Positions 824 through 14,776 of a stretch of 64,000 bases of DNA are shown in pieces. The notes beneath the pieces are model-generated. The model worked only from the letters and a program-made list of their open reading frames with translations. It was not told the DNA's origin and did no database searches. Both the position numbers and the translations under genes were made by a program. Position 1 is the stretch's first letter; every line of letters starts with the position of its first letter. Source of the stretch: Pseudomonas protegens CHA0 (GTDB lineage: Bacteria > Pseudomonadota > Gammaproteobacteria > Pseudomonadales > Pseudomonadaceae); the NCBI RefSeq assembly GCF_000397205.1, contig NC_021237.1, positions 4,465,001 through 4,529,000 of the forward strand. Direction: 5' to 3'.

Positions 824-2293
824 TTAGTTGTGCGGCGTAGCTGGAATGGCGTTGGCTGCGCTCAGGGTCTCGCCCTGAAAGCCCCCGCCCAGCGCTTGCA
901 TCAGTTGAATCGACAAATCGATCTGCTCAGCATTGAGGTTGGCCAACTGACGTTGGGCCTGCAGCAGTTGCTGCTCGATGCTGAGCACGTCCAGGTAGTT
1001 GCCGATGCCGGAACCGTAACGCTGGACCACGGTGTTATAGGAATCCTGAGCAATATCGGTGGCGTGCTGTTGCGCGCCGATTTGCCGGCCGATGTCACGC
1101 AACTGGTTGATCGTGTCGCTGACATCACCCAGCGCTTTCACCAGGCTTTTGTTGTACTGCGCCACCGCCAGATCGTAATCGGCGTCACGCGAATCGAGGT
1201 TGGCGCGCAGGCGCCCGCCATCGAAGATCGGCAGCGAAATGGTCGGGGCGATGCTGAAGAAGCGACTGGCCGAACCAAACATTGCGTCACCCAACAAGGA
1301 TTCGGCACCGGCGGAAGCCGTAAGGTTCAGGTTGGGATAGAAGCGGGTTTTCGCCGAATCGATGTCTTTGCTCGCGGCCTCTACACGCCAGCGGGCGGCG
1401 ACCAGGTCCGGGCGGCGGCCAAGCAGCTCTGCCGGAAGAACCGAGGGCACAGCCACGGCGCTGGCTTGCAATACTTTGGGCCGGGCGATTTCACTGCCGC
1501 GATCCGGGCCTTTGCCGAGCAGCACGGCCAGGGCGATTTTCGCACTGCTCAGACGTTTTTCGGCGTCGATCAGGCTGGCTTCGGAACTGGCTTCCAGACT
1601 CTGGGTTTGCTGGAGCTGGTACTGGCTGTCGATCCCGGCGCTCAAGCGACGCTGGCTCAGATCGAGCATTTGTCTGGTGCGCTTGAGGTCGTCGCTGGCC
1701 AGGTCATAGACGATGTGCGCCTGCCCCAGATCGCTGTAGGCCCGGGCCACATCGGCGGCGAGGGTCAATTGCGCGGCCTGACGGTCGACTTCAGCAGCAC
1801 GAGCCTGGCCGAGTGCGGCTTCCCAGGCGTCACGCTGGCCTCCCCACAGGTCGAAGTTGTAATTGAAGCCGGCGCTGATGTTGCGCACGGTGGCGTAGGC
1901 ATCGCCCTGCCCCAGCGGATCCTGATCCTTGGCCAGGCGCGAACGGCTGATGCCGGCGCTGGCATCGAGGGTCGGATAGCGTTCGGCATCGGCGGCATAC
2001 GCGGCGGCGCTGGCCTGATGGGCGCGGGCGGCGGCAATCTGCATGTCCGGGCTGTCGCGCAGGGCTTCGCGGATCAGACCGTCGAGCTGTGGATCGCCGA
2101 GGCTGGTCCACCAGTCGCTTTTCGGCCATGCCGCAGGCGACAGGGTCACACCGTTGAGGGATTGGCCGGCCTTCAGGCTTTTCGCGTCGAGATTTTTGCC
2201 TTGGGTATCGAGGCCGCTGTAATTGGCGCATCCGGCAAGGATCATCGCCGACAGCACCAGCGTCAGGCTGCTGCGCAAGGTTTTACTGCTCAT
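824..2293 (-). CDS. NodT/OprM-family outer-membrane efflux lipoprotein
   Basis: Outer-membrane channel of a resistance-nodulation or EmrAB-type tripartite pump. The N-terminus is a lipoprotein signal with lipobox LAGC (Cys about residue 22), followed by two OEP repeats of the TolC fold. Family motifs are visible, including the LGRRPDLVAARWRVEAA stretch and FYPNLNLTASAG. I chose ATG 2293 (489 aa) because AGGTGA lies 6 bases upstream. An in-frame GTG at 2302 would merely extend into the marR gene. The start lies within the last codons of marR (11-base overlap), indicating translational coupling. The adaptor gene follows 14 bases after the stop. The family is certain; the drug range cannot be read. 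Confidence 0.93.
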   Translation of the reverse strand: MSSKTLRSSLTLVLSAMILAGCANYSGLDTQGKNLDAKSLKAGQSLNGVTLSPAAWPKSDWWTSLGDPQLDGLIREALRDSPDMQIAAARAHQASAAAYAADAERYPTLDASAGISRSRLAKDQDPLGQGDAYATVRNISAGFNYNFDLWGGQRDAWEAALGQARAAEVDRQAAQLTLAADVARAYSDLGQAHIVYDLASDDLKRTRQMLDLSQRRLSAGIDSQYQLQQTQSLEASSEASLIDAEKRLSSAKIALAVLLGKGPDRGSEIARPKVLQASAVAVPSVLPAELLGRRPDLVAARWRVEAASKDIDSAKTRFYPNLNLTASAGAESLLGDAMFGSASRFFSIAPTISLPIFDGGRLRANLDSRDADYDLAVAQYNKSLVKALGDVSDTINQLRDIGRQIGAQQHATDIAQDSYNTVVQRYGSGIGNYLDVLSIEQQLLQAQRQLANLNAEQIDLSIQLMQALGGGFQGETLSAANAIPATPHN

Positions 2294-2765
2294 TGTGTTC
2301 ACCTAAGCGCTGGATGGTGATCGGGTCACCGGCGGCCAGCAGGATTTTCTTGAGGATGTATTCCAGGGTCTTCAACTCGTCCGGGGAGATCGCGCCAGCC
2401 AGTTCATTCATCGCGTCGGCGCCGATCTGCGGCAGCCGATCCGTCAACTGCTGGCCCTGTTCGGTCAGGGTCAGTTGCACTTGGCGGCGATCACCTTCGC
2501 TGCGTTGGCGAGCCAGGAAGCCCTTCTGCTCCAGACGATCGAGCATGCGTGTCATCGAACCGCTGTCCAGCGAAAGGTGCCGGCACAGCTCGGCCGGGGT
2601 ATCGACGCCGAACTGGGCCATGATGATCAACACTTTGAACTGCGCGGCAGTGATGCCGTGGGGTTCCATGTGGGTGTCGATGATCCGGTCCTTGAGCAAT
2701 GCGGCGCGGCCCAGCAACAGGCCGAGATGGCAGGTTTTGAATTCGTCCGGGGTGAAATGCTTCAT
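2283..2765 (-). CDS. MarR-family transcriptional regulator of the efflux operon
   Basis: A 160-residue winged-helix repressor. The central part (AELCRHLSLDSGSMTRMLDRLEQ, the helix-turn-helix, then the wing SEGDRRQVQLTLTEQG) is typical of MarR proteins. It is the first gene of the leftward operon with the outer-membrane factor and HlyD adaptor. Its ATG at 2765 is preceded by AGGTG at 6 bases, the same ribosome-site sequence used by the next gene. Two near-identical palindromes lie just upstream, so autoregulation with release by a phenolic or drug ligand is the natural inference. EmrR/MprA-like control of EmrAB is the closest known arrangement. Confidence 0.93.
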   Translation of the reverse strand: MKHFTPDEFKTCHLGLLLGRAALLKDRIIDTHMEPHGITAAQFKVLIIMAQFGVDTPAELCRHLSLDSGSMTRMLDRLEQKGFLARQRSEGDRRQVQLTLTEQGQQLTDRLPQIGADAMNELAGAISPDELKTLEYILKKILLAAGDPITIQRLGEHNEQ

Positions 2766-2779
2766 GTGCTCACCTAATA

Positions 2780-2825
2780 ACTGCCTAGGCAGTGAATATA
2801 TGTCGAGATATTACTGCCTAGGCAG
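2780..2825. promoter_or_regulatory. Paired palindromic operators for the MarR regulator
   Basis: ACTGCCTAGGCAGT at 2780-2793 is a perfect 14-base palindrome and is repeated as ACTGCCTAGGCAG at 2813-2825, 33 bases apart centre to centre, that is about three helical turns. The spacer is A+T rich and would hold the promoter. The nearer site ends 15 bases from the marR start. This is very probably where the regulator represses its own operon, an inference from position and symmetry. Confidence 0.75.
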
Positions 2826-2957
2826 CGAATGTCAACGCAATAGTTAGGTTGCTTTGTAATTAGTTGACCTATGGACTGGGTCTTTATGCTGAACAGGCGG
2901 GCGTCATCACCAACCCGCTGACGATTAGTAGTCTTCATGCCTCTGCCTGCCGCCTGT

Positions 2958-3383
2958 GAATCAACGGGATTGCCCTATTCCACGATGACTTCGACAAAGG
3001 CCATGGCTCGCACGTGCTCCCGGCATCCCCCCCTTCAGCGAGTTGAAGATCGAGCGCATACAGGTGCACGACTGCAGCGCCAACGAGGAACTGACGCAGG
3101 CGCCGACCTGCATTGCCAGGCTCGGTCCCCCGTTGGTCTAACGGTGGTGACGGGAAGCTTGGAGACCGCGCAAGAACTTGATCTGTTGCGTAAAATCGAC
3201 TGCACTCAGATTCAGGGTTTCCTGATCTTTCACGCCATATCTTCGGATCAATTCCAGCCGTTGCTGTCCCATGGCGGGCCGACAAACGCGTATGGATTGG
3301 CAAGCGGGTGTCGAGGCCCGTCACTTGCCATCGTGGTCACTGTGTCCAACGGCTCTCTCATCACTGCTACCCAGGTCCTCTAA
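2958..3383 (+). pseudogene. Relic of an EAL-domain (PvrR/RocR-like) phosphodiesterase, frameshifted
   Basis: Three reading frames together spell the C-terminal part of an EAL domain. From about 2970 one frame gives GIALFHDDFDKGHGSHVLPASP, matching the family's DDFGTGYSSLSYL. From about 3027, after a frameshift in a run of C, another gives PPFSELKIERIQVHDC, matching FDELKIDRSFV. From about 3140 a third gives LTVVTGSLETAQELDLLRK and then QGFLIFHAISSDQFQPLL, matching VVAEGVET...GYLFSRPLP. Its last frame ends in TAA overlapping the ATG of the hybrid kinase (TAATG), the coupling expected of a former operon partner. The N-terminal receiver and most of the EAL domain are absent. In P. aeruginosa PvrR or RocR sits beside RcsC/PvrS/RocS1-type kinases, which supports the identification. 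Confidence 0.8.
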
Positions 3384-6300
3384 TGCCACATCCCAATGCC
3401 CTTCTGGAGAAACTCGCCAGCAGTTCCTCGCGCCTGAACAAGAGCCTGCTGGTGCTCGGAGCCCTGTTGTTGCTGTTGCTGGGCATCAGCTATGTGGGGG
3501 TGACGCGCATGATCGAAGAGCGGCGCGAAACCTTGCAGTTTCACTTCGCTCGGCTGATGGAGAATGTCCACGAACAGGAAGTGTTCCTGCAGGATATCGC
3601 CCGGGAAAGCGTCAAGAGCGAACGGCTGCCCAGTCTCATGTTGCCACCCTACTCACAAAAACCCCTGCCCGATGAAGGGCCGAATATTTACGAGGGCCGC
3701 GGCCTGCCGTTTTCGCTGCCCTATAGCTTGAAGATCAATACGGACAGGATTGCCCCCAGCCAATACCCGAAGATCTTTGCGCTGGGTACCCATTTGGCGG
3801 CCTATTACAGTGCGTTCTGGTCGGCCTCGCACTATCAGTCGCCCCAAGTCGCCCTGATCAATGGCCCCGACAATTTTGACCTTGCCGTACCCTCCACCGG
3901 GCGTTTGCGCGGTCCGGGACGGGTACCAATGCCTATGGGCGATCTGATCGATGCGATGACCCGCTTGAACAAGCGCCTGCGCGGGCAGAACTCGCCATTG
4001 CCAGATTTTCAGGTGCACTGGGAACCCTATGTCTCTTCCAATGACGACAAGAGCGCCCCCACCCTGCTGGCGTACGTGAGTATCAACCTGGCGAAAACCG
4101 CATTGACCGTCGAGGGCGCCGATACCTGGGTGGTGCTGGGCTCGCTGATGAACCTGTCTCAGGTCAACAACATCGAGCGGTTGATGCAGTGGTCGATCTA
4201 CGATGACTTCACCTTGATCACCCCTCGTGGCGTGGTATTGACCGGAGCTCTGAAACCCGGCGAGGTGCTGGATGAAGGGGTGAACTTCAACCGCGACGGC
4301 CTGGTGTTCAAACTGAGCAGCCCCGGGGAGCATCACTGGACGGCGATCTACTTCATCAGCCTGCGCAGCTTCCTCGATTACGCGCTGTGGCCATTGCTTG
4401 GCCTGGTCGCGCTGGTGCTTGCGCTGCTCGGTTGCAGTCGGGCGATCAATCGCTGGTACCAGGCCCGGGTCATCCTGCCCGCGCAGAGCGCCCACGCCAG
4501 CATCGCTGAAAGCGAGGCATTCAGCCGCACGGTGATCGATACGGCGCCGACCGGCCTGTGCGTGATTCGCCGCAGCGATCACCAGGTGCTGCTGGAAAAC
4601 CAGCGCGCCCAGCAATGGCACGACAACGGCCAACTGATGAGCTTGCTCACGCCCCTTACGGGCCCCGGTCATGCCGATCTTGAAATCAATGGGCGCCACT
4701 TGCATGTTGCCTTCGTGCCCACCCGCTATCAGGGCCAGGACGCCTGGTTATGTGCGTTGCATGACGTGACCCGGCATGTCGAAGATGCAGCGGCGCTGGA
4801 AGAGGCGCGCCAGGCCGCCGACTCGGCAAACCAGGCCAAAAGCCGTTTCCTCGCCACCATGAGCCACGAGATCCGTACTCCCCTGTACGGCGTGCTGGGA
4901 ACTCTGGAGCTGCTTGGCCTGACCTCGCTCGCCCCGCGCCAGCAGGATTACCTGCACACCATCCAGCGCTCCTCCGCCACGTTGTTCCAACTGGTCAGCG
5001 ATGTACTGGATGTGTCGAAAATCGAAGCCGGACAGATGACCCTCGAACTTGAGGATTTCTGCCCGCTGGAGCTGACCGAAGACACCGTGCGCACCTACAG
5101 CGCCTTCGCCCGATCCAAGGGCCTGCTGCTCTATGCCTGCATCGACCCGGCGCTGCCGGACCGGTTGCGCGGTGACCCGATACGGATTCGCCAGATCCTC
5201 AACAACTTGTTGAGCAACGCCATCAAGTTCACCGATAACGGTCGCGTGGTGCTGCGGGTTCAGTTGCTGGAAAGCGACGACGGCCGTGCCCATGTGCAAT
5301 GGCAAGTCAGCGATTCGGGAAAGGGGATTACCCAGGCGCAACAACAGCAACTGTTCGACCCTTTCTATCAGGTCAACGACGCCAACGCGCAAGCCGGTGC
5401 CGGATTGGGACTGGCCATTTGCAAATGGCTGTGCGAGTTGATGGCGGGCCAGTTGAACGTGGTCAGCGAGCCCGGGCTCGGCAGCAGTTTCATCCTTCAA
5501 CTCTCGCTGGAACACGCACCCGGTGAGCTGGCCGATTGCCCTGTGTTCGGCCCCGGCAGCGCCGCCGTCTATGTGCGTGCAAAGGTCGCTGAACAGGCCC
5601 AACACCTGATGGCCTGGCTCAAGCGTTTTGGCCTCGACTGCCACCCGCTGACGGCCGGTACACCAGTGTCATCGGCACTGCTGGTAGAGCTTTGCTCGCT
5701 GGCCAATACCGCGGCCTGGCCGGGTCCGAAGGTCGTCGCCACGGCGGATGGCCCCAACCCTTCGCAATTACGCGGTACCGTCCGAGAAGTCGACGCCCAT
5801 GATGTCCGCGCGATCGCCTGGGCGATTTACCAGGCCCAGCACGGCGCTCGCACCGACAGCCAACCTTCGTCGCCGGATACCCCCCGGCAGTTGAATCTGC
5901 AAGTGCTGGTGGCGGAAGACAATGTGATCAACTCGGCGATCATCAAGGAGCAACTGGAAGTGCTGGGCTGCTCGGTGGTCGTCGCGGCCAATGGCGAGCT
6001 TGCCCTGGCGCAGTGGTCGCCCGGACGTTTCGATCTGCTGCTGACCGACGTCAATATGCCGGTCATGAACGGCTACCAATTGACCACGGCGTTGCGACAA
6101 CTGGATCAGGCCTTGCCGATTATCGGCGTCACCGCCAACGCCTTGCGCGAAGAAGGCGAGCGCTGCGCTAGCGTCGGCATGAACGCCTGGATGGTCAAGC
6201 CGCTGAACCTCGCCACCCTGCGCGCGCACCTGGAAAGACATTGCAAAATCGCCCTACCGGCGACCAGCGTTGCGCCTCTAAAGCTGTCATCGAACATGCG

Positions 6301-6556
6301 CGAACTCTTTGTCACGACGCTACGCCAGGACATGCAGGTCACGCTGACGGCACTGGACAACGCCGATGCCCATCGCGTGGCGCAACAGCTGCACAGCATG
6401 GCCGGTGCATTGGGTGCGGTACAGCTCGAGGAACTGGCCACAACCTTCGTCGAGCTGGAGTGTCGCCTGAACGGCATGAGCGTGACCAGCGCCCTGGACC
6501 TGGAGGTGCGCCAGAATCTGGCTCGATTGAAAGACCTGCTGGACACCCTTGAATAA
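3383..6556 (+). CDS. RcsC-like hybrid sensor histidine kinase linked to fimbrial genes
   Basis: A 1057-residue inner-membrane sensor. Order: short cytoplasmic N-terminus, transmembrane helix about residues 20-37, periplasmic sensor region of about 290 residues, second helix near 330-350, a degenerate PAS-like region, HisKA with phospho-acceptor His495 in ATMSHEIRTPLYG, HATPase with N, G1 and G2 boxes (NNLLSNAIKF, DSGKGI, GAGLGLAIC), a linker like the RcsC ABL region, a receiver with Asp889 in LLTDVNMPVMNGY, and a C-terminal Hpt-like helix with His1004 (QQLHSMAGALG). All phosphorelay residues are present. I chose ATG 3383, which overlaps the stop of the EAL relic; the frame extends further upstream without support. 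Both neighbouring partners are relics, so the intact kinase may signal to an unlinked regulator or be orphaned. Confidence 0.9.
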   Translation: MPHPNALLEKLASSSSRLNKSLLVLGALLLLLLGISYVGVTRMIEERRETLQFHFARLMENVHEQEVFLQDIARESVKSERLPSLMLPPYSQKPLPDEGPNIYEGRGLPFSLPYSLKINTDRIAPSQYPKIFALGTHLAAYYSAFWSASHYQSPQVALINGPDNFDLAVPSTGRLRGPGRVPMPMGDLIDAMTRLNKRLRGQNSPLPDFQVHWEPYVSSNDDKSAPTLLAYVSINLAKTALTVEGADTWVVLGSLMNLSQVNNIERLMQWSIYDDFTLITPRGVVLTGALKPGEVLDEGVNFNRDGLVFKLSSPGEHHWTAIYFISLRSFLDYALWPLLGLVALVLALLGCSRAINRWYQARVILPAQSAHASIAESEAFSRTVIDTAPTGLCVIRRSDHQVLLENQRAQQWHDNGQLMSLLTPLTGPGHADLEINGRHLHVAFVPTRYQGQDAWLCALHDVTRHVEDAAALEEARQAADSANQAKSRFLATMSHEIRTPLYGVLGTLELLGLTSLAPRQQDYLHTIQRSSATLFQLVSDVLDVSKIEAGQMTLELEDFCPLELTEDTVRTYSAFARSKGLLLYACIDPALPDRLRGDPIRIRQILNNLLSNAIKFTDNGRVVLRVQLLESDDGRAHVQWQVSDSGKGITQAQQQQLFDPFYQVNDANAQAGAGLGLAICKWLCELMAGQLNVVSEPGLGSSFILQLSLEHAPGELADCPVFGPGSAAVYVRAKVAEQAQHLMAWLKRFGLDCHPLTAGTPVSSALLVELCSLANTAAWPGPKVVATADGPNPSQLRGTVREVDAHDVRAIAWAIYQAQHGARTDSQPSSPDTPRQLNLQVLVAEDNVINSAIIKEQLEVLGCSVVVAANGELALAQWSPGRFDLLLTDVNMPVMNGYQLTTALRQLDQALPIIGVTANALREEGERCASVGMNAWMVKPLNLATLRAHLERHCKIALPATSVAPLKLSSNMRELFVTTLRQDMQVTLTALDNADAHRVAQQLHSMAGALGAVQLEELATTFVELECRLNGMSVTSALDLEVRQNLARLKDLLDTLE

Positions 6557-6577
6557 TTTCAATGCGGATAATCAGCC

Positions 6578-6814
6578 ATGGAAACCCTCAAGGTTGCCAT
6601 TGCCAATGACCACCCCATCGTCCTGGGGGGGTACGAGAGCTGGTTGAGCGTGGCCAATGCTTGCGCGCTGATGGAATACCTGACGCGGCACTTCCCCAAC
6701 GTGCTGGTGCTGGCGCTGACGATAATTTCCAACCCGCTGAGCCTGACGCGCCTGCAAGAGATCGTGGCAAGCCGGTGCGCAGCAGTGCCGAGCGTTTTAC
6801 TCATTTGTTGCTAA
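6578..6814 (+). pseudogene. Relic of an RcsB-like response regulator with internal deletion
   Basis: The 78-residue frame begins KVAIANDHPIVLGGYESWL, the start of an RcsB/LuxR-type receiver with the acidic pocket altered to N-D. It then jumps within a few residues to LMEYLTRHFPNVLVLALTIISNP and LTRLQEI, which belong to the alpha3/beta4/alpha4 part of the same domain. About 40 residues in between are missing, including the phospho-acceptor Asp and the MPG motif. The rest of the receiver and the whole LuxR helix-turn-helix are gone, and the tail (ASRCAAVPSVLLICC) is not family-like. It lies 21 bases after the hybrid kinase, where cupD-type loci carry rcsB. It cannot be phosphorylated or bind DNA in the normal way. 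Confidence 0.82.
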
Positions 6815-7094
6815 AGGAACATAAAATAGTGCGTTGATTTGTTCCGGGAGTGGGAGTCAGCAACAATTGACTTAAGAGCGAAAAGATAACAAGCATTCAA
6901 AAAACTCTTGCCACGAGCAAACTTGGCGCCAACAGCAACCATACACTTCTGGATTACTAACATAACTAGAAAAAACTCAAACCAATAGACAACTACATTC
7001 CAGCTGCAATTAACTTCTAGGAATCGTCTGATGTACCACCAAAAAATCGCGTTATATCGTGTTGTTGTTTTAAACCTAACCACTGGAAAACAAC
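6815..7094 (+). promoter_or_regulatory. A+T-rich upstream region of the fimbrial operon
   Basis: These 280 bases between the regulator relic and the pilin gene are much richer in A+T than the rest of the window. They contain no convincing gene, although a leftward frame of 106 codons crosses them. Regulatory regions of fimbrial operons are typically like this and are bound by H-NS/MvaT-type silencers and RcsB-like activators. No single promoter could be fixed by eye. The pilin ATG follows GGAAAACAAC, a weak ribosome site. Confidence 0.45.
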
Positions 7095-7697
7095 ATGAAA
7101 AAGCTAACTCGCGCACTTCTCGCCCTTTCAATCATCGCCGCCGCTGGCAATGCCTTGGCAGAGGAGCCCGTTACTACACCCGCTAACCCCATCCAGGCCG
7201 GTAGTGGCACTATCAACTTCACCGGCACCATCAACAATGACGCCTGCTCCGTTGAGGGTGCTGGCAAGGGTAAAACCATCGCGGTCGAAATGGGCGAAGT
7301 GTCGATCAAAGACATGGGCACTCCCAGCGCGCCTAAAGGCAACGGCACACTGAACGTCGAAAACTTCAGCATGAAGATCAACTGCAACGCCGGTACTAAG
7401 GTCGCAATGATCTTCAAACCAACCTCGGGCGCAGGTTCGGGTCTCGTGCCCGGTACCAAGGTGCTTCGTCTGATTGACGGTCTGGGGGCTGCGAAAGGTA
7501 TCGGCATTGCGCTGCTTGACTCCAATGGCGAGGTGATCGACCTCCGCACGGCAAGCACCGCAAAGATCGAAAACTCTCTGCAAGACAGCAACGCCACCCT
7601 CAAATTCTCCGCAGCCTACGTAACCACCGGCACTCCGGCACAGGCTGTTGCCGGTCGTGGCGACGCCACCCTACCGTTCACGCTGCAATACGAATAA
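7095..7697 (+). CDS. Type-1-like fimbrial major subunit (chaperone-usher pilin)
   Basis: A 200-residue exported pilin. A signal peptide (MKKLTRALLALSIIAAAGNA, cleavage near LA-EE) is followed by an Ig-like pilin domain lacking its last strand. The paired cysteines NDACSVEG and KINCNAG form the usual disulfide, and the C-terminus (DATLPFTLQYE) has the alternating hydrophobic pattern and penultimate Tyr used in donor-strand exchange with the chaperone. It is the first structural gene and lies 72 bases before the chaperone, matching CupD1/CupB1-type order. The neighbouring regulatory genes point to an RcsB/Pvr- or Roc-controlled fimbria. No tip adhesin is found nearby. Confidence 0.92.
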   Translation: MKKLTRALLALSIIAAAGNALAEEPVTTPANPIQAGSGTINFTGTINNDACSVEGAGKGKTIAVEMGEVSIKDMGTPSAPKGNGTLNVENFSMKINCNAGTKVAMIFKPTSGAGSGLVPGTKVLRLIDGLGAAKGIGIALLDSNGEVIDLRTASTAKIENSLQDSNATLKFSAAYVTTGTPAQAVAGRGDATLPFTLQYE

Positions 7698-7769: not shown

Positions 7770-8519
7770 ATGTTTTATCGTCACTCACTATCCTTTTGTG
7801 CAGGCCTGCTGAGCCTGTTCATGGTCAATCAGGCCATGGCCGGAATTTCCTTGAGCAGCACCCGGCTGATTTTCGACGGCCAGCACAAGGAGGCCGGAAT
7901 CACCGTGCGCAACAGCGGTGAAGACGTGTTGATCCAGTCGTGGATCGACACCGACTCCAGCGAAACCGCAGCAGTACCCTTTGCCGTCACGCCGCCACTG
8001 GTGCGCGTCAGCGGCGACGAACAGCAAATATTGCGGGTGATCTACGAAGGCACGGGCATGCCATCCGACCGCGAGTCGGTGGTGTGGCTCAATGTGCAAG
8101 AGATCCCTCAAGCGGCGAAATCCAAGAACACCTTGCAACTGGCCGTGCGTCAGCGCATCAAGGTGTTCTTCCGCCCGGCAGGCCTGAAAAACAACGCCTA
8201 TCTGGCACCGAGCGAACTGACCTGGCGCCTGACAGAACAAGCCGGCAAGCACCTGTTGGTGGTGAACAACCCTGGCCGGTATCACGTGTCGATTGCCGAA
8301 ATCACACTTCAATCCGGCACCGTCAGTGAGCAACCCGTTGAATCAATGATGATTGCCCCCGGCGAGCAAAAAAGCTTCCCCCTTAAACAACTTCACAACG
8401 CCAATACAGCCCGTCTTTTATTCAAAAGCATTAATGATTATGGCGCACAAGATCGTTATGGAGCACAAATTTCCAACAGTGCCGATACCCGAGCCAGTTT
8501 GAATAAACAAACCCCATAA
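7770..8519 (+). CDS. Periplasmic fimbrial chaperone (PapD-like)
   Basis: A 249-residue periplasmic chaperone that folds and caps pilins by donating its G1 strand. A signal peptide ends near AMA-GISL. Then comes the N-terminal Ig domain beginning LSSTRLIFDGQHKEAGITVRN with its conserved Arg, the PPLVRVSGDEQQILRVIY motif and AVRQRIKVFFRP with the anchoring basic residue. A second Ig domain follows. It is encoded between pilin and usher. Its last 60 bases become noticeably A+T rich (NDYGAQDRYGAQISNS), unlike the middle of the gene. Confidence 0.93.
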   Translation: MFYRHSLSFCAGLLSLFMVNQAMAGISLSSTRLIFDGQHKEAGITVRNSGEDVLIQSWIDTDSSETAAVPFAVTPPLVRVSGDEQQILRVIYEGTGMPSDRESVVWLNVQEIPQAAKSKNTLQLAVRQRIKVFFRPAGLKNNAYLAPSELTWRLTEQAGKHLLVVNNPGRYHVSIAEITLQSGTVSEQPVESMMIAPGEQKSFPLKQLHNANTARLLFKSINDYGAQDRYGAQISNSADTRASLNKQTP

Positions 8520-8604
8520 CTTAAGCGCCGCTGTGACGGCTGAACTTCCACTGTATTTCTCTTCGCTCCGTTAGTTCGTATCGGAGGTGATATGGGGTTC
8601 CTGC

Positions 8605-11094
8605 ATGTTTTTACTCAAGCGCGACAGATGGGCGCCATTTTCGATTGTTCTTTTATTCAGCACCACCTGCGTAGCCGATGACGATGAACAGTTCAATACC
8701 TCGTTTCTCCTAGGCGCACCATCTTCTGTGGATCTGCAACCATTGCTCGCCAGCAGTCGTGTGCTGCCCGGCATCTATCGGGTGGACCTGTACGGCAACG
8801 AAACGCTGGTCGGCCGCCGCGACATCGATTTTCGTCGCCCTCCCGGCACGAGCAAGGTCGAGGCCTGCCTGACTCTGGAAATAGTGCAGCAACTGGGGGT
8901 CGACATCGGCAAGCTGCAAGCCAGCGGCAAACTGAGCAGCGATGATCCCGATGCCTGCCTGGACTTGCCCGCCTTGATCGATCACGCCAGCGTGCGTTAC
9001 GACGTACCCCGTCTGCGCTTGATCGTCAGTGTTCCGCAACGCGCCATGGTGCGTGGCCGACGTGGTTATGTCGACTCGGCCCTATGGGACGAAGGCGTTC
9101 CCGCCGCATTCATCAACTATCAGTTGAGCAGCAGCCGCAACGGCACTCGGGGTGAAAATACCCTGTCCAACAACATCGGCCTGCGCAACGGCATCAACCT
9201 CGGCGCCTGGCGCTTGCGTAACGAATCGAACTTCAGCAGCAGCACCGGCCGCCCCAGCACATTCAAAAGTAACCGCAGCTATCTGCAACATGACGTGACT
9301 GCCCTGAAGGGCCAGTTCAGCGCCGGGGATATTTTTTCAGATGCCGACCTGTTCGACAGCGTGCGCTATCGCGGCCTGAAACTGGCGTCCGACGACGGCA
9401 TGCGTGCCGACAGCGAGCGCGGTTATGCGCCAATCATTCGCGGCATTGCGCAGTCCAGCGCCACCGTGGAGATTCGCCAGGACAGCTACCTCCTCTACAC
9501 CGCCAACGTGCCGCCGGGGCCATTCGAGATCAGCGATATCTACCCCAGCGGCTCCAACGGCGACCTGGAAGTGACGATTATCGAAGCCGATGGCCGCCGC
9601 CGGGTGACGGTGCAGGCATTTTCCAGCCTGCCGATCATGGTCCGTGAGGGCCAGTTGAAGTACAGCGTCTCGGCCGGCCGGTACAACAGCAACAGCGTTG
9701 ACCAGAAGTCACCGCAATTTGTCAGCAGCACCCTGGCATACGGCATCAGCAGTAACTTGTCCGGGATCGTCGGGGTGCAGGCCTCGGAAAACTTCAAGGC
9801 GCTGTCCGTGGGGACTGGCCGCAATACAACTATCGGTGCCGTCTCGCTGGACTTGACCCACTCCATGAGCAGCACTTTCGGCAAAACCATCACCGGCAAC
9901 AGCCTGCGCGCGCTGTATGCGAAGACGTTCACCGGCACCGACACCAACTTCACCCTCGCCGCCTATCGCTACTCGACCGAGGGCTATCGCACCCTCACCG
10001 AGCACGTCGAGGAACTGAGCAACGACGGTCAGAAGCGTATCGGCAACTCGAAAACCCGTACCGACCTGACCGTCAACCAGAGCCTGGGCCGAAACCAGCG
10101 ATACGGCAGCGCCTACATCAACGCCAGCGACCAGCGTTACTGGGGACGCGGGGGCTCGCAAAGCCTGTCGGCGGGTTACAGCAACTATTGGGGCGATGTG
10201 AGCTACAACCTCGGCGCCACCTACTCCAAGGATGTCGGCAACTACGGGCCGGCGAACAATGACACACTGGTGAACCTGTCCATATCGTTCCCGCTGGGCT
10301 CCAAGCCTCGTGCACCCCGCGCCTTCGTCTCGGCCAGCACGCAGAAATCCAGCGATACCACGCAAATGGGCATCAACGGCTATCTGGCGCAAGACAGCGA
10401 CACCTATTACTCAGTGCAAGCCGGCAACAGCAGCAACGGCGGCAGCTCCGGCTCAGTCAACCTCAGCACCCGCACCTCATTTATGGATATCAGCGCCGGT
10501 TACAGCCAGGGGCGCGGTTACAACGCGCAAAACCTTAACCTGTCGGGTTCGATCGTCGGCCATGCCGGCGGAATCAACCTGGGACAAACCGTGGGCGAAA
10601 CGTTCGCGCTGGCGCAAGTCGAAGGCGCAGAAGGGGTGAAAGGGGTGAAAATCGGCAGCTTCTCCGGAGCCAGGACCGGCAGCAACGGCTTCGCCGTGAT
10701 CCCCAATGCGCAGCCCTATCGCGTGAACTGGATCAACCTCGACACTCGAGACCTGGGCGCCGATATCGAGATCGACAGTGGGACCCGGCAAGTGGTGCCA
10801 CGTCGTGGTGCCGTGGTGCTGGCGCGTTACACCAGCAAGACCGGACGGCGGGTGCAGTTTGCGCTGTTCGACGCCAAGCACCAGCCGATTCCGTTTGGCG
10901 CGTCGCTCGAGGACAGCACTGGCAAACAGTTGGCGATCTCTGACCCTGGTGGCAAGGCTCTGGCACTGGTTGAAGCCGACACCGGTACCCTGACTATCCA
11001 CTGGCAGGGCCAGAGGTGTGAAGCGCCTTATGCCTTGCCCGAACGCGACAAGGCGCTGAACTATGAGCGGGCGAACCTGGTGTGCCGCCCCTGA
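8605..11094 (+). CDS. Fimbrial outer-membrane usher (FimD/PapC family)
   Basis: Outer-membrane assembly platform for the fimbria, about 829 residues, the usual length. Order: signal peptide ending CVA-DDDEQ, usher N-domain (FNTSFLLG, with SVDLQPL and PGIYRVDLYGNE), 24-strand barrel with plug in the middle third (ANVPPGPFEISDIYPSGSNG), and C-domains ending LVCRP. The start is uncertain. I chose ATG 8605, which gives a normal signal peptide, but GGAGGT at 8583-8588 is 16 bases away. It is ideally placed for an ATG at 8592 in the wrong frame, and an in-frame GTG at 8587 overlaps it. The gene ends 4 bases before the convergent tamB stop, so no adhesin gene follows. Confidence 0.9.
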   Translation: MFLLKRDRWAPFSIVLLFSTTCVADDDEQFNTSFLLGAPSSVDLQPLLASSRVLPGIYRVDLYGNETLVGRRDIDFRRPPGTSKVEACLTLEIVQQLGVDIGKLQASGKLSSDDPDACLDLPALIDHASVRYDVPRLRLIVSVPQRAMVRGRRGYVDSALWDEGVPAAFINYQLSSSRNGTRGENTLSNNIGLRNGINLGAWRLRNESNFSSSTGRPSTFKSNRSYLQHDVTALKGQFSAGDIFSDADLFDSVRYRGLKLASDDGMRADSERGYAPIIRGIAQSSATVEIRQDSYLLYTANVPPGPFEISDIYPSGSNGDLEVTIIEADGRRRVTVQAFSSLPIMVREGQLKYSVSAGRYNSNSVDQKSPQFVSSTLAYGISSNLSGIVGVQASENFKALSVGTGRNTTIGAVSLDLTHSMSSTFGKTITGNSLRALYAKTFTGTDTNFTLAAYRYSTEGYRTLTEHVEELSNDGQKRIGNSKTRTDLTVNQSLGRNQRYGSAYINASDQRYWGRGGSQSLSAGYSNYWGDVSYNLGATYSKDVGNYGPANNDTLVNLSISFPLGSKPRAPRAFVSASTQKSSDTTQMGINGYLAQDSDTYYSVQAGNSSNGGSSGSVNLSTRTSFMDISAGYSQGRGYNAQNLNLSGSIVGHAGGINLGQTVGETFALAQVEGAEGVKGVKIGSFSGARTGSNGFAVIPNAQPYRVNWINLDTRDLGADIEIDSGTRQVVPRRGAVVLARYTSKTGRRVQFALFDAKHQPIPFGASLEDSTGKQLAISDPGGKALALVEADTGTLTIHWQGQRCEAPYALPERDKALNYERANLVCRP

Positions 11095-11098
11095 TTCC

Positions 11099-14000
11099 TC
11101 AGAAATCGCGCTTGTAAAAGATATCCAGGGAGCTGGCGAAACCGCTCGCCGCTTCCAGATAGACCTTCTTGCTCAGCTTGTAACGCAGAGCGATGGTACT
11201 GGCGGGCTCAAAGACCCCGACGCCATAGCGCAGGCTGAGCCTTTCGGAAATGGCGCCGCTGGCCACCACGCTGGTGTTGTTGCCGCTGCCCTGGGTATCG
11301 AGTTGGAAGTCTTGAATGCCCAGGTTCTTGGCAATGCCTCCGGTCAGTTCCGAGCTGCCCATCAGCCCCAGCCCGAGAGCCGCCTGGGCCAGCATGTTGT
11401 TGTCTTCACCGGTGGACGTCAGCGGGCGCCCCAGAACCAGATAGGACAGCGCCTGTTCCTGGCTCATGGCCGGTTCCGAAAATATCTGCGTCGCCGGTTG
11501 CTCGGCGCTGCCGCTCAGGCGGATGCCGGCAATCACGTCGTCAGTCTGGCGCACGGCCTCGATGTCCAGGTAAGGCTGGTCGATGGGGCCGGCAAACAGC
11601 AGCCGCGCACGACGCACGGTCAAGCGCTGGCCGTAGGCCCGATAGCGGCCGTCGTTGAGCCACAGCTCACCGCGGGTATCCATATTGTCACCAATGTGCA
11701 CGTGCCCCTGCAGGTTGGCAGTCAGGCCGAAACCGCTGAAGGCCAGCTTGTCCTGGCCCACCTCCACATCGATGTTCATAGCCATGGCCATGGGCTTTTT
11801 GCCGTCGTCGGTCTGCTGGCCGACGATCACCGTGTCGTCGGAGACCTTGACCGTCGAGGGCGGCAATTCGCGCACGGTGATCTGGCCCTTGGGGATCAGC
11901 ACCTTGCCAGCAATCGCCAGCTTTTCCTCCTGCAGCGAGATCTTCAGGTCCGGCGCCACCTCCAGCGCCGCATAGGGCTCCACCGTCACCGGCAGTTGGG
12001 TGCCCTTGAGGCTCAGGTCCACCAATAGCGCCCGGCCCCAAGCGATGTTGCCATTGAGGCTGCCCTGCCCGGCCTTGCCGCTTTTCCAGCCGCCGTTGAG
12101 CTGCACGCTCTCGCCAGCGATCTGCGCGCTCAGTTGCAGGTCTTCAAGGCTGATGGGCAACTCGGAGCCGGACACCTCGCCCCCGGACAACTGCACGTTG
12201 CCGTTGACCTGAGGCGCCAGCAGGCCGCCAGACAAACGACCGCTGCCATTGAGGCTGCCGCTGAGCTTTTCCACCATGGGCACGAACGGCCGCGCCACGG
12301 ACAGATCCAGGCCGCTGAGGCGGAAATCACCGGACAGCGGTTTGCTTTTCGGCAAGGGATTGATCTGCGCCTGGAGCATCAGCTCACCCAGTTTGCCGCC
12401 GTCGAACTGCAAATGCGTGTCGATGCGCCTCGGGGTGAGTCGGGTATTGAGCTTCAATGCCTGATAGGGGAAATCCAGCCACTGGTCCTTTTCCTTGACC
12501 CGCAGGGTACCACCGCTGGCGTCCAGCATGATCTGGCCCTGGGGCCCGCTGGCCGGCAAGTCCAATTGCACATCGGCATTGAGCATGCCCTTCCAGGCGA
12601 AATCCTTGGGCAACCACTGCGCCAGGCTGTCGAGGGGAAAACGCTTGAGGTGATAACGCAGTTTCGGGTCCGGCATCAGCCGCTGGTCTTCACCGCACAG
12701 GCTGGCATCGCCGCTGGCCCAGCAGTGGGCACCGAAGTTCAGCGTGCCGTTGGCCAGCCGCTCAAGCCGGGCCGGGTTCTGCAGCTTCCAGTCCTGGCCG
12801 CCGGTCTGTACATCGCCGCTGGCCAGGCGCCCGCGCCAGCTGCCCTGGTCCAGGGCGCCATCCAGGCCCAGGGCCAGTTTCAACAGCGGTCCTTGCAGGT
12901 CCAGTTGCAGTTTCTGTTTCTTGATGTCGCCCTGGCCGGCCAGGGTCAGGGTCCCCAACTGCGTGTCGCCCAGTTGAATCCCGCTGCCCTTGAGGTCCAC
13001 CTGGGCCTTTTGCGCGCCATCCAGAGTGGCGTCCAACTTGAGGTTCTGCAGGCGGTTTTCGGCAAAGGCCAGTTGCTGCCCGGCCAGGTCCAGCTTGCCC
13101 TGTGGCGCCTTGAGGGTGCCGGCCAGGTCCAGCCGACCGTTGAGCTGCCCACGCAACTCGGGCCAGAGCTGACCCAGGCGCGGCATCTTGATATCCAGCT
13201 GGCCGGTGATCTTCTGTTGCAGGCTGCCGGAGCCGTTGATCCGGTTGTCTCCCAGGCGGATGTCCAGCGCGCCCAGGGTCCATTGCTCGTCCGCTCCGTC
13301 GGCCTTGGCCTGGAGAACCGCCGGCTGTCCGCGCAAGCGTCCCTTGAGGTCGAGGTTGGCATTGAGCTTGAGTTGCTGGTTCTTCATTTCGCCCTGGCTG
13401 CGCAGGGGGCCGGCCAGGGTTCCGGGCAGCTCCGCCACCCAGTACGCGGGGTTGATGGCCGACAGATCCAGGGCGGTATCCCAGGCAATGCCGTCGGCGA
13501 ACTGCAGGTTCAGGTGGCCCTCGGCCTTGCCCTGGCCCGCCGCCAGCTTGAACTGCGGCAGATAGATTTTCGTCAGGTCGCCGCTGAACGGGCTGCTCAG
13601 GCTGAACGCGCCTGCCGGGCCGTCCAGGTCGCCCTTGAAGTTGCCCAGGTAGTTACCGTCACGGTAAGCCACTTCGGCATCAAAACTGCGGACCCGCACC
13701 GCCGGCTCGTCAATCAGCGGATACAGACGGTGCCAGGGGAAGTCCAGCCAGGCCAGCTTGGCCTCGGCGGCAAAACCTTCGCTCCAGTCCAGTTGCCCAC
13801 TGAGCTTGAGGTGTTGCTTGTCGTTGGCGCTCAGGTCCAGGGCGGCAATCTGTGCGCCCTTGGCGTCGACCTTGCCTTGCAGCAACAGGGCCACCGGGCC
13901 CTGCTCCGCCGGCAGGCTGGCCTTGCCGGCGAGCTGGTAGCCGCTTTTCAGGTCGCCCCTGCCAGTCAGCTCCAGCTGATCCAGTTGCAGGGTGTCCGGC

Positions 14001-14776
14001 AGATCGGCGCTGGCCTTGAACCCATCGGCAGTGATTCGCACCTGGGCTGGCAGGTTCTCCACCAGGGGCTGCACCTGGCCGCTCAATTGCCCTTGCAGGT
14101 AGCCACGGCTGTCGGCATTGAGCTGCAGAGTCTTGAGCAGGTCGCCTTCAACCTTCAACGCCAGGGACCAGGGGCCACCGCCGGGAGCGGGCAAGCCGAG
14201 GTTGCCTTGGGCGGTCAGGGGCCAGTCGCCACTGGGTTGCAGCAGCCCGGAAAGGTCCAGACTCAGGTCATCGCGCTTTAGGTGCAAAGAGTCGATCTGC
14301 AGGCCTTGGGCAGTCCAGTGCGCCGCCAGCTGCAGGGTCTTGAGTTCTTCACTGCCATTGAACAGCAGGCTGCCCACACGCACTTGCCCCAACTCGATGG
14401 CCAACGGCAGCTTCAGTTCCGGCAGGCTGATGGGCTCCGAACTGGTTTCGGTTTCGCCGCTCGGAGGGAACAGCAGGCTGACCTGATCGGCTTCCAACTG
14501 CTCGATGCACAGGGTCATGCGCAGCAGGCAGCCGGGCGACCAGGTGAACTGCACGGCATTGAGCTCGACCCGGTTGCCCTCCTGTTGCCAGAGCAGATGA
14601 TCGGCGCTCCAGTGCCCGCCAAGGCGGCCCTCGAAATTTTCCAGGGTCAGCCCCGGCACTCGCGCCAGGGCCCAGCGGCTGCCAGCCTGGGTTCCGAGTA
14701 CGCTGGCCACGGCCAGAATGATCAGGATCACCAGCGCAACAATCGCCAGCAGCGTTATCTTCAAACCACGCTTCAA
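11099..14776 (-). CDS. tamB: TamB, inner-membrane-anchored component of the translocation and assembly module
   Basis: A 1225-residue protein with one N-terminal membrane helix (ITLLAIVALVILIILAVASV) and a very long periplasmic body of repeated beta-strand units (many LQLDL/GQLDW-type pairs). The C-terminal DUF490/TamB domain ends in KVYLEAASGFASSLDIFYKRDF, with the terminal Phe typical of barrel-interacting strands. With TamA it serves autotransporter assembly and, as an AsmA-like bridge, phospholipid transfer to the outer membrane. The start codon is TTG at 14776, and its TTGA overlaps the TGA of tamA, so translation is coupled. The family is certain. The length is normal. Confidence 0.96.
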   Translation of the reverse strand: MKRGLKITLLAIVALVILIILAVASVLGTQAGSRWALARVPGLTLENFEGRLGGHWSADHLLWQQEGNRVELNAVQFTWSPGCLLRMTLCIEQLEADQVSLLFPPSGETETSSEPISLPELKLPLAIELGQVRVGSLLFNGSEELKTLQLAAHWTAQGLQIDSLHLKRDDLSLDLSGLLQPSGDWPLTAQGNLGLPAPGGGPWSLALKVEGDLLKTLQLNADSRGYLQGQLSGQVQPLVENLPAQVRITADGFKASADLPDTLQLDQLELTGRGDLKSGYQLAGKASLPAEQGPVALLLQGKVDAKGAQIAALDLSANDKQHLKLSGQLDWSEGFAAEAKLAWLDFPWHRLYPLIDEPAVRVRSFDAEVAYRDGNYLGNFKGDLDGPAGAFSLSSPFSGDLTKIYLPQFKLAAGQGKAEGHLNLQFADGIAWDTALDLSAINPAYWVAELPGTLAGPLRSQGEMKNQQLKLNANLDLKGRLRGQPAVLQAKADGADEQWTLGALDIRLGDNRINGSGSLQQKITGQLDIKMPRLGQLWPELRGQLNGRLDLAGTLKAPQGKLDLAGQQLAFAENRLQNLKLDATLDGAQKAQVDLKGSGIQLGDTQLGTLTLAGQGDIKKQKLQLDLQGPLLKLALGLDGALDQGSWRGRLASGDVQTGGQDWKLQNPARLERLANGTLNFGAHCWASGDASLCGEDQRLMPDPKLRYHLKRFPLDSLAQWLPKDFAWKGMLNADVQLDLPASGPQGQIMLDASGGTLRVKEKDQWLDFPYQALKLNTRLTPRRIDTHLQFDGGKLGELMLQAQINPLPKSKPLSGDFRLSGLDLSVARPFVPMVEKLSGSLNGSGRLSGGLLAPQVNGNVQLSGGEVSGSELPISLEDLQLSAQIAGESVQLNGGWKSGKAGQGSLNGNIAWGRALLVDLSLKGTQLPVTVEPYAALEVAPDLKISLQEEKLAIAGKVLIPKGQITVRELPPSTVKVSDDTVIVGQQTDDGKKPMAMAMNIDVEVGQDKLAFSGFGLTANLQGHVHIGDNMDTRGELWLNDGRYRAYGQRLTVRRARLLFAGPIDQPYLDIEAVRQTDDVIAGIRLSGSAEQPATQIFSEPAMSQEQALSYLVLGRPLTSTGEDNNMLAQAALGLGLMGSSELTGGIAKNLGIQDFQLDTQGSGNNTSVVASGAISERLSLRYGVGVFEPASTIALRYKLSKKVYLEAASGFASSLDIFYKRDF

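What the first reader, a model, noticed from the sequence alone, without database searches (positions are those of the whole stretch)
2958..6814. Half-dead Rcs/Pvr-like phosphorelay: intact hybrid kinase between two broken partner genes
The order EAL protein, hybrid kinase, RcsB-like regulator, then chaperone-usher fimbria matches cupD/cupC-type loci of P. aeruginosa, where the EAL protein and RcsB oppose each other. Here both output genes are relics, yet the 1057-residue kinase keeps its His, Asp and Hpt His residues. A kinase kept without local outputs may have been rewired to unlinked regulators.
Basis: partly seen in the sequence, partly recalled or inferred. Interest (0 to 1): 0.7.

Follow-up and report, generated by a model that had tools for sequence, protein, structure and literature searches.

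The report
Fimbrial relay kinase outliving its partners
In this Pseudomonas genome a fimbria gene cluster has lost three of the four regulators of its switch, yet the remaining relay protein, the fimbria genes and the switch's likely DNA-binding site are still kept intact, probably because a second copy of the switch elsewhere in the genome now runs them.

Summary
The 1057-residue protein (3383-6556) is an intact RcsC-type sensor between a PvrR-type (REC-EAL) relic and an RcsB-type relic. In P. aeruginosa PA14, PvrS is the kinase and RcsC a relay and phosphatase. The relics drift (window-branch omega 0.56 and 0.44, background 0.04 and 0.09); RcsC does not (0.18 vs 0.14; omega=1 rejected). Fimbrial genes stay constrained. 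The RcsB-type box before fimA survives: 32 of 33 conserved promoter columns kept, against 70 of 111 in the adjacent dead rcsB. The genome holds an unlinked pvrS-pvrR-rcsC-rcsB set without nearby fimbrial genes, with the same kind of box before its pvrS. In 37 genomes with this RcsC type, the neighbouring pvrS was lost in 3, all among the 5 with a second PvrS (p=0.0013, post hoc); pvrR alone, however, was also lost in one genome without a second set. Best reading: takeover in trans by the paralogous set, RcsC kept as shared relay/phosphatase. The wiring is inferred. A new variant of a known network.

The parts
824..2302 (-). outer-membrane efflux (OMF)-like gene, left flank of the locus (name recalled from the sequence, not from a family search)
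   Evidence: same neighbour in L052, L053, L054 and L098
2283..2765 (-). MarR-like regulator gene, left flank (name recalled, no family search)
   Evidence: synteny
2886..2913 (.). deletion junction: 28 bp where L052 has about 4.8 kb (tip, pvrS and two thirds of pvrR)
   Evidence: window 2602-2885 matches L052 3601-3884; window 2914 onward matches L052 from 8695
2915..3293 (+). relic of pvrR-type REC-EAL gene (codons 269-395 only, more than one frame, in-frame stop)
3383..6556 (+). intact RcsC-type unorthodox sensor (1057 aa)
   Evidence: constrained:
4835..5032 (+). HisKA domain with H495 and the E496/T499 phosphatase-type motif
5171..5512 (+). HATPase_c domain
5903..6232 (+). receiver (REC) domain, D889, acidic pair E845-D846
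6296..6532 (+). Hpt domain, H1004
6578..6957 (+). relic of rcsB-type REC-GerE gene (stretch with the phospho-Asp lost, frame changes, stop)
7018..7032 (+). RcsB-type box TAGGAATCGTCTGAT, first base 77 bp before the fimA ATG
7095..7697 (+). fimA-type major subunit
   Evidence: window-branch omega 0.117 vs 0.077, not significant
7770..8519 (+). PapD-type chaperone
   Evidence: omega 0.137 vs 0.130
8605..11094 (+). usher (start inside the listed ORF 8587-11094, by homology)
   Evidence: omega 0.093 vs 0.069, not significant
11099..14776 (-). TamB-like gene, right flank (name recalled, no family search)
   Evidence: synteny

Best explanation
The locus is a PvrSR/RcsCB-controlled chaperone-usher fimbria cluster whose regulatory work has passed to a second, unlinked copy of the same switch. 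Shown: a deletion of about 4.8 kb took tip, pvrS and most of pvrR; rcsB and the pvrR remnant decayed; the RcsC-type protein and the fimbrial genes stayed under selection and the RcsB-type box before fimA was kept. Inferred: phosphorylated RcsB2 (from the pvrS2-pvrR2-rcsC2-rcsB2 set at 3.59 Mb) binds the preserved box and turns the fimbriae on; RcsC here takes phosphate from PvrS2 on its REC, passes it through its Hpt to RcsB2 and/or strips it from RcsB2, so that it sets the threshold of the second set; PvrR2 or the RocR-like protein supplies the EAL brake.
For: Selection: RcsC window-branch omega 0.177 (about 0.13-0.23) vs 0.142 background, 2dL 2.1; omega=1 worse by about 133 in 2lnL; relics 0.557 vs 0.044 and 0.438 vs 0.088. 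Neutral simulation: at 0.10 substitutions/site 0 of 400 runs were free of stops. Promoter: 32/33 conserved columns kept vs 70/111 in the adjacent rcsB relic, Fisher p=5e-5. Box (at most 1 mismatch to a consensus that I drew from these loci) in 43 of 45 fimA and 14 of 14 pvrS upstream regions, set 2 included; shuffled controls 0 and 0. In PA14 the GAA at -78 to -76 of cupD1 is essential (PMC3842833 section 9). RcsB2 differs by one residue over NRSAKTISTQKISAMRKLEV (taken as the recognition region, recalled) and is identical over ADDHPIVLLGVREL to L052's RcsB. No fimA, chaperone or usher match in the 18 kb fetched around set 2. Cis pvrS lost in 3 of 37 genomes, all among the 5 with a second PvrS, p=0.0013. 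Precedent: RocS1 and RocS2 act on response regulators of other loci (PMC3083521 passages; PMC12051241).
Against: No interaction, expression or fimbriation data. The association test is post hoc, the genomes are related, and it holds for pvrS only: G417 lost pvrR and CBZ-4 (L030/G323) has a split rcsB, both without a second PvrS. P. palmensis shows no box (at most 2 mismatches) in either fetched locus (L087, L125), nor does set 3 (L056). The 15-bp box alone could survive drift by chance; the whole promoter comparison carries the weight. RcsC's window-branch omega is the highest of the five branches tested (0.113-0.177), and all three fimbrial genes are nominally raised, none significantly; the REC domain is 0.226 vs 0.089 (2dL 3.3). 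The tip and pvrS promoters with their boxes went with the 4.8 kb, and no forward sigma-70-like site was found in 2600-7200, so expression of the kinase is unproven. The codon model rests on a tree in which window+L052 has support 0.60.
Confidence: 0.55

Rival explanations
1. RcsC is retained for a different partner: the Roc1-like set at 1.27 Mb or set 3 at 4.13 Mb rather than set 2, i.e. a true change of partner.
For: At 1.27 Mb lie a kinase with two SBP_bac_3, PAS, HisKA, HATPase_c, REC and Hpt, a REC-EAL gene and a REC-GerE regulator, with a 1-mismatch box before the REC-EAL gene. A third pvrS/pvrR/rcsC/rcsB set lies at 4.13 Mb. P. palmensis (L024/G247) keeps an RcsC without a linked fimbria, so the protein can be kept for something else.
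Against: The RcsB-like regulators of these sets are 39-42% identical to the lost type, against 68% for set 2. P. palmensis also has a second PvrS-RcsC-RcsB set.
Confidence: 0.22
2. Simple ongoing decay: the regulators died recently and RcsC and the fimbrial genes are merely not broken yet.
For: Window-branch omega is nominally above background for RcsC, usher, fimA and chaperone, none significantly. RcsB-relic omega rejects full-branch neutrality (2dL 6.4), so part of the decay may be late.
Against: By arithmetic the relics have had about 0.2 neutral substitutions per site (about 0.1 at the lower limits); a neutral 1057-codon frame would then carry about 8-14 stops. Promoter columns are kept far better than the neighbouring relic.
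Confidence: 0.15
3. Sequencing or assembly artefact.
For: Frameshifts in homopolymers are common artefacts, and one RcsB frame change lies at a run of G.
Against: A 4.8-kb absence, an internal rcsB deletion, stops and frame changes fall in the regulator genes, while kinase, usher and TamB-like frames of 2.5-3.7 kb are clean.
Confidence: 0.01

Closest known systems
PvrSR/RcsCB - cupD locus of P. aeruginosa PA14 (PAPI-1)
   Same: Regulator set pvrS-pvrR-rcsC-rcsB beside cup genes, as in intact relatives of the window; RcsC with HisKA-ATPase, REC and Hpt; EAL and RcsB antagonists; RcsB-type site about 75 bp before the first cup gene (PMC3842833: passages; sections 8 and 9).
   Different: In the window pvrS, pvrR and rcsB are lost; chromosomal, between MarR/OMF-like and TamB-like genes; the box is kept without a cis RcsB. 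No PA14 sequence was compared here.
Roc network of P. aeruginosa (RocS1, RocS2, RocS4/HptA, RocA1-3, RocR, RocR3)
   Same: Sensors acting on response regulators from other loci; gene erosion between clades and an orphan hybrid kinase are reported (PMC12051241: abstract, sections 11 and 12, passages. PMC3083521: passages).
   Different: Here the remnant sits inside its former cup locus, with the cup promoter box kept.
Rcs phosphorelay of enterobacteria (RcsC/RcsD/RcsB)
   Same: REC domain matches solved chains named Sensor kinase protein rcsC (2ayx, 2ayz); GAA of an RcsAB-like box (PMC3842833).
   Different: Hpt is fused in the same protein; RcsD, RcsF and IgaA were not looked for.
NFIX28 (L016, L094/G372) and P. 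palmensis (L024, L087/G247) loci
   Same: RcsC-type protein kept after loss of pvrS and (most of) pvrR in cis; second set elsewhere.
   Different: NFIX28 keeps rcsB and the fimbria; P. palmensis has no rcsB and no fimbrial genes there.

Membership tests
RcsC-type unorthodox sensor of PvrSR/RcsCB loci | HisKA-HATPase-REC-Hpt architecture with catalytic residues | tested here: met
RcsC-type unorthodox sensor of PvrSR/RcsCB loci | Orthology and synteny to rcsC in intact pvrS-pvrR-rcsC-rcsB-cup loci | tested here: met
   83% identity to L052 between the same neighbours
RcsC-type unorthodox sensor of PvrSR/RcsCB loci | Relays phosphate from PvrS to RcsB and dephosphorylates RcsB | not testable with these tools
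   motif residues kept; function reported for PA14
Complete PvrSR/RcsCB-cup locus | Intact pvrS, pvrR, rcsC and rcsB in cis | tested here: not met
   pvrS absent, pvrR and rcsB relics
RcsB-regulated cup promoter | Conserved GAA-containing box about 75 bp before the first cup gene | tested here: met
   box at 7018-7032
RcsB-regulated cup promoter | RcsB binding and activation | not testable with these tools
   none
Roc cross-acting network | Sensor acts on regulators encoded elsewhere | tested here: inconclusive
   similar paralogues exist; no interaction data

The most novel reading that the evidence does not exclude
Reciprocal decay: two paralogous phosphorelays have each lost complementary parts and now form one split switch. 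Locus 1 keeps the relay, the fimbria and the operator but no kinase or regulators; locus 2 keeps kinase and regulators but no nearby fimbria, and its own RcsC2 has lost the acidic pair of its receiver (KH for ED, alone among 58 resolved RcsC rows, some of them repeat fetches), so phosphate could pass only through locus 1's RcsC. Against it: two other genomes with a damaged receiver in this kind of RcsC (G092, REC absent; G293, D to N) showed no window-type RcsC in the survey, and NFIX28's second set has an intact receiver.
Probability: 0.2. Interest if true: 0.75.

Novelty: new variant of a known kind. Interest (0 to 1): 0.5.

Why it matters
It is a natural experiment in how two-component networks lose and share parts: loss of the cis kinase pvrS was seen only in genomes with a second PvrS, and in the window both relay and operator are preserved. 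It gives a concrete, testable case of trans takeover (one fimbrial promoter, one orphan relay, one candidate regulator) in a network for which the papers that I read deal with P. aeruginosa and P. paraeruginosa, and it suggests that RcsC's relay/phosphatase role, not its linkage, is what selection keeps.

Tried and rejected
Sequencing-error explanation: rejected on the number and kind of lesions. A dead fimbria: not supported; fimA, chaperone and usher are constrained. Loss of the 'tip' gene as proof of a dead fimbria: rejected, since L089 with pvrS, pvrR, rcsC and the fimbrial genes has only about 160 bp between marR and pvrS. Domain-specific relaxation of the kinase: only REC hinted at it, not significant. 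A general rule that window-type RcsC is kept because RcsC2 is broken: weakened, because damaged receivers (L093, L114) occur in genomes where no window-type RcsC was found at E<=1e-230, and NFIX28's second set has an intact receiver (L117). A promoter for the kinase: consensus scan only, nothing forward found. A first association test (p=0.005) used a narrower definition of the second set and was replaced by the PvrS-based one. Paper searches (up to 15 listed titles and abstract starts each) showed no report of this locus or of partner loss outside P. aeruginosa/P. paraeruginosa; the papers named here came.
Full report
What is there. The window is G000:C1:4465001-4529000 of a one-contig 6.87-Mb genome, a Pseudomonas by its relatives. 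The frame 3383-6556 encodes 1057 residues with HisKA, HATPase_c, receiver and Hpt domains and keeps H495, T499, E845-D846, D889, K939 and H1004. Before it lie three pieces of the last third of a REC-EAL gene (2915-3293), and after it pieces of a REC-GerE gene (6578-6957) without the phospho-acceptor region. Then follow fimA, chaperone and usher.

Ancestral state. Among the 39 named loci found with the kinase, a near-full-length PvrR match is present in 37 and a single full-length RcsB match in 37 (exceptions L016 and L024 for PvrR, L024 and L030 for RcsB). All were found through RcsC, so loci without it are not counted. The window lacks about 4.8 kb relative to L052, with 28 bp in its place. 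In L100-L102 MarR-like and TamB-like genes lie 0.2-1.7 kb apart with no match to the cluster's genes, so the cluster is itself variable.

Selection. The other four branches tested one by one gave 0.113 (L052), 0.172 (L095), 0.118 (L053) and 0.125 (L009), so the window's is the highest of five, not significantly. PvrR-relic pieces: 0.557 vs 0.044 (2dL 47; about 0.3-1.05 from the profile; omega=1 worse by 3.4). RcsB-relic pieces: 0.438 vs 0.088 (2dL 19; about 0.25-0.8; omega=1 worse by 6.4). The relics were therefore unconstrained for a large part of the branch; for rcsB not for all of it. Relic blocks were picked by similarity, which biases omega down. By arithmetic on these numbers the neutral distance is about 0.2 per site, about 0.1 at the lower limits. 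A neutral frame at 0.10 had 7.7 stops on average and 0 of 400 runs stayed open; at 0.05, 8 of 400; at 0.03, 30 of 400. fimA 0.117 vs 0.077 and chaperone 0.137 vs 0.130 (10 and 8 taxa) and usher 0.093 vs 0.069 are nominally raised, none significantly. Retention is not special to the kinase: relay and fimbria are both kept.

Promoter. The 16 relatives aligned (L030's rcsB is split) share a footprint before fimA, roughly TTCTARGRATCGYCTGAT ... TTATYGTGTTG (letters are my summary). The window keeps 32 of 33 columns conserved in at least 15 of 16, but 70 of 111 in the adjacent rcsB remnant 6790-6975 (5 of the misses are gaps; Fisher 5e-5). With each relative left out in turn, they keep 103-111 of 111-117 and 28-33 of 33-36. 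The box starts 77 bp before the ATG. PA14 cupD1 needs GAA at -78 to -76. In the window's genome the exact box occurs only here; with 1 mismatch once (before a REC-EAL gene at 1.27 Mb), with 2 mismatches three times, one of them before pvrS2; the reversed-pattern control gave 1 hit. Of those not read, L099 shows a box and L037 none that I can see; L125 has none at 2 mismatches or fewer before pvrS, and L087 and L056 have none at all.

Candidate partners. The genome has set 2 (L055; pvrS 63%, pvrR 74%, rcsC 48%, rcsB 68%), set 3 (L056; 35-44%) and a Roc1-like locus. Set 2 has no fimA, chaperone or usher match in the 18 kb fetched. RcsB2 differs by one residue from L052's RcsB over NRSAKTISTQKISAMRKLEV, with two more differences just before it. 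RcsC2 has KH in place of the acidic ED of its receiver; the other 57 rows resolved at that place have ED (several rows are repeat fetches). In PA14 PvrS acts through RcsC and its Hpt, and PvrS's own receiver Asp is not needed, so a dead RcsC2 receiver would make the window's RcsC useful. Against this, related sets with REC absent (L093) or D to N (L114) come from genomes in which no window-type RcsC was found at E<=1e-230, and NFIX28's second RcsC looks intact (L117).

Comparative test. Of 398 genus genomes, 87 have an RcsC match, 82 a PvrR match and 87 an RcsB match at the thresholds set. Among 37 genomes whose RcsC is at least 56% identical to the window's, pvrS beside it is lost in G000, G372 (NFIX28) and G247 (P. 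palmensis). A second full-length PvrS (at least 50%) is present in those three and in G192 and G265; the G265 copy has a stop inside. One-sided Fisher p=0.0013, or 0.0015 with the 35 genomes at 58% or more. G307 (only the C-terminal part of pvrS seen, L065), G034 and G380 (broken frames) were counted as 'kept'. The test is post hoc and the genomes are related. It concerns pvrS only: G417 has lost pvrR but kept pvrS, and G323 (CBZ-4, L030) has rcsB in two frames, and neither shows a second PvrS. Outside the 37, G197, G314 and G342 also show partial or missing pvrR or a split rcsB, and G092 an RcsC without REC. The three pvrS losses differ in extent: the window keeps 127 codons of pvrR, NFIX28 about 54 codons and an intact rcsB, P. 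palmensis rcsC alone. The P. palmensis second set has pvrS, a 793-aa RcsC and an rcsB 57% identical.

Function. In PA14 PvrS is the kinase, RcsC a relay and phosphatase, RcsB the activator of cupD and PvrR the EAL antagonist (PMC3842833: passages, sections 8 and 9). RocS1 and RocS2 act on RocA1 and RocA2 across loci (PMC3083521: passages), and erosion of Roc loci is reported (PMC12051241: abstract, sections 11 and 12, passages). I therefore read the window as a cup locus run in trans by set 2, with RcsC shared. Steps shown: loss, decay, retention, box, paralogues. Steps inferred: which regulator binds, which way phosphate flows, and that the kinase is expressed.

Verdict. It is a new variant of a known network, with a testable split-switch reading.

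Noticed in passing
L055 (G000:C1:3588000-3606000), rcsC2: RcsC2 of the unlinked set has KH instead of ED in its receiver's acidic pocket, alone among 58 resolved RcsC rows.
   Followed up: partly
L093 (G092) and L114 (G293): RcsC of related sets without matched fimbrial genes: the receiver domain is absent in an open frame of about 984 aa (L093), and the phospho-Asp is Asn in L114; receivers seem to decay repeatedly in this group.
   Followed up: partly
L087 (G247:C85) and L125 (G247:C71): P. palmensis keeps a window-type RcsC alone, near pgsA-, uvrC- and GacA-like frames (names recalled), and has a second PvrS-RcsC-RcsB set whose RcsC (793 aa) lacks the periplasmic region and has no pvrR beside it; an EAL-like frame of 268 aa (by eye) lies upstream.
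   Followed up: partly
L110 (G000:C1:1264000-1276000): RocS1/RocR/RocA1-like locus with a one-mismatch RcsB box between the kinase and the REC-EAL gene.
   Followed up: partly
L104 (G360:C1:1105000-1124000): RcsC match ends at residue 943-944, before the Hpt, and the RcsB match of the same genome lies about 130 kb away, as if something had split the locus.
   Followed up: no
window 2783-2830: Two TGCCTAGGCAG palindromes before the marR-like gene, overlapping a promoter-like site on the minus strand; after the deletion they lie close to the pvrR relic and the kinase.
   Followed up: no
window 2937-3383: A 148-aa open frame running through the last pvrR piece ends in TAA overlapping the kinase ATG (TAATG), a possible coupling.
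   Followed up: no
L003/L096 (P. entomophila COR5), chaperone: In-frame stop in the matched chaperone frame of an otherwise complete cluster.
   Followed up: no
L054 (G034): Broken frames in pvrS, rcsC, fimA and chaperone alike; may be an error-prone assembly (completeness 95) rather than biology.
   Followed up: no
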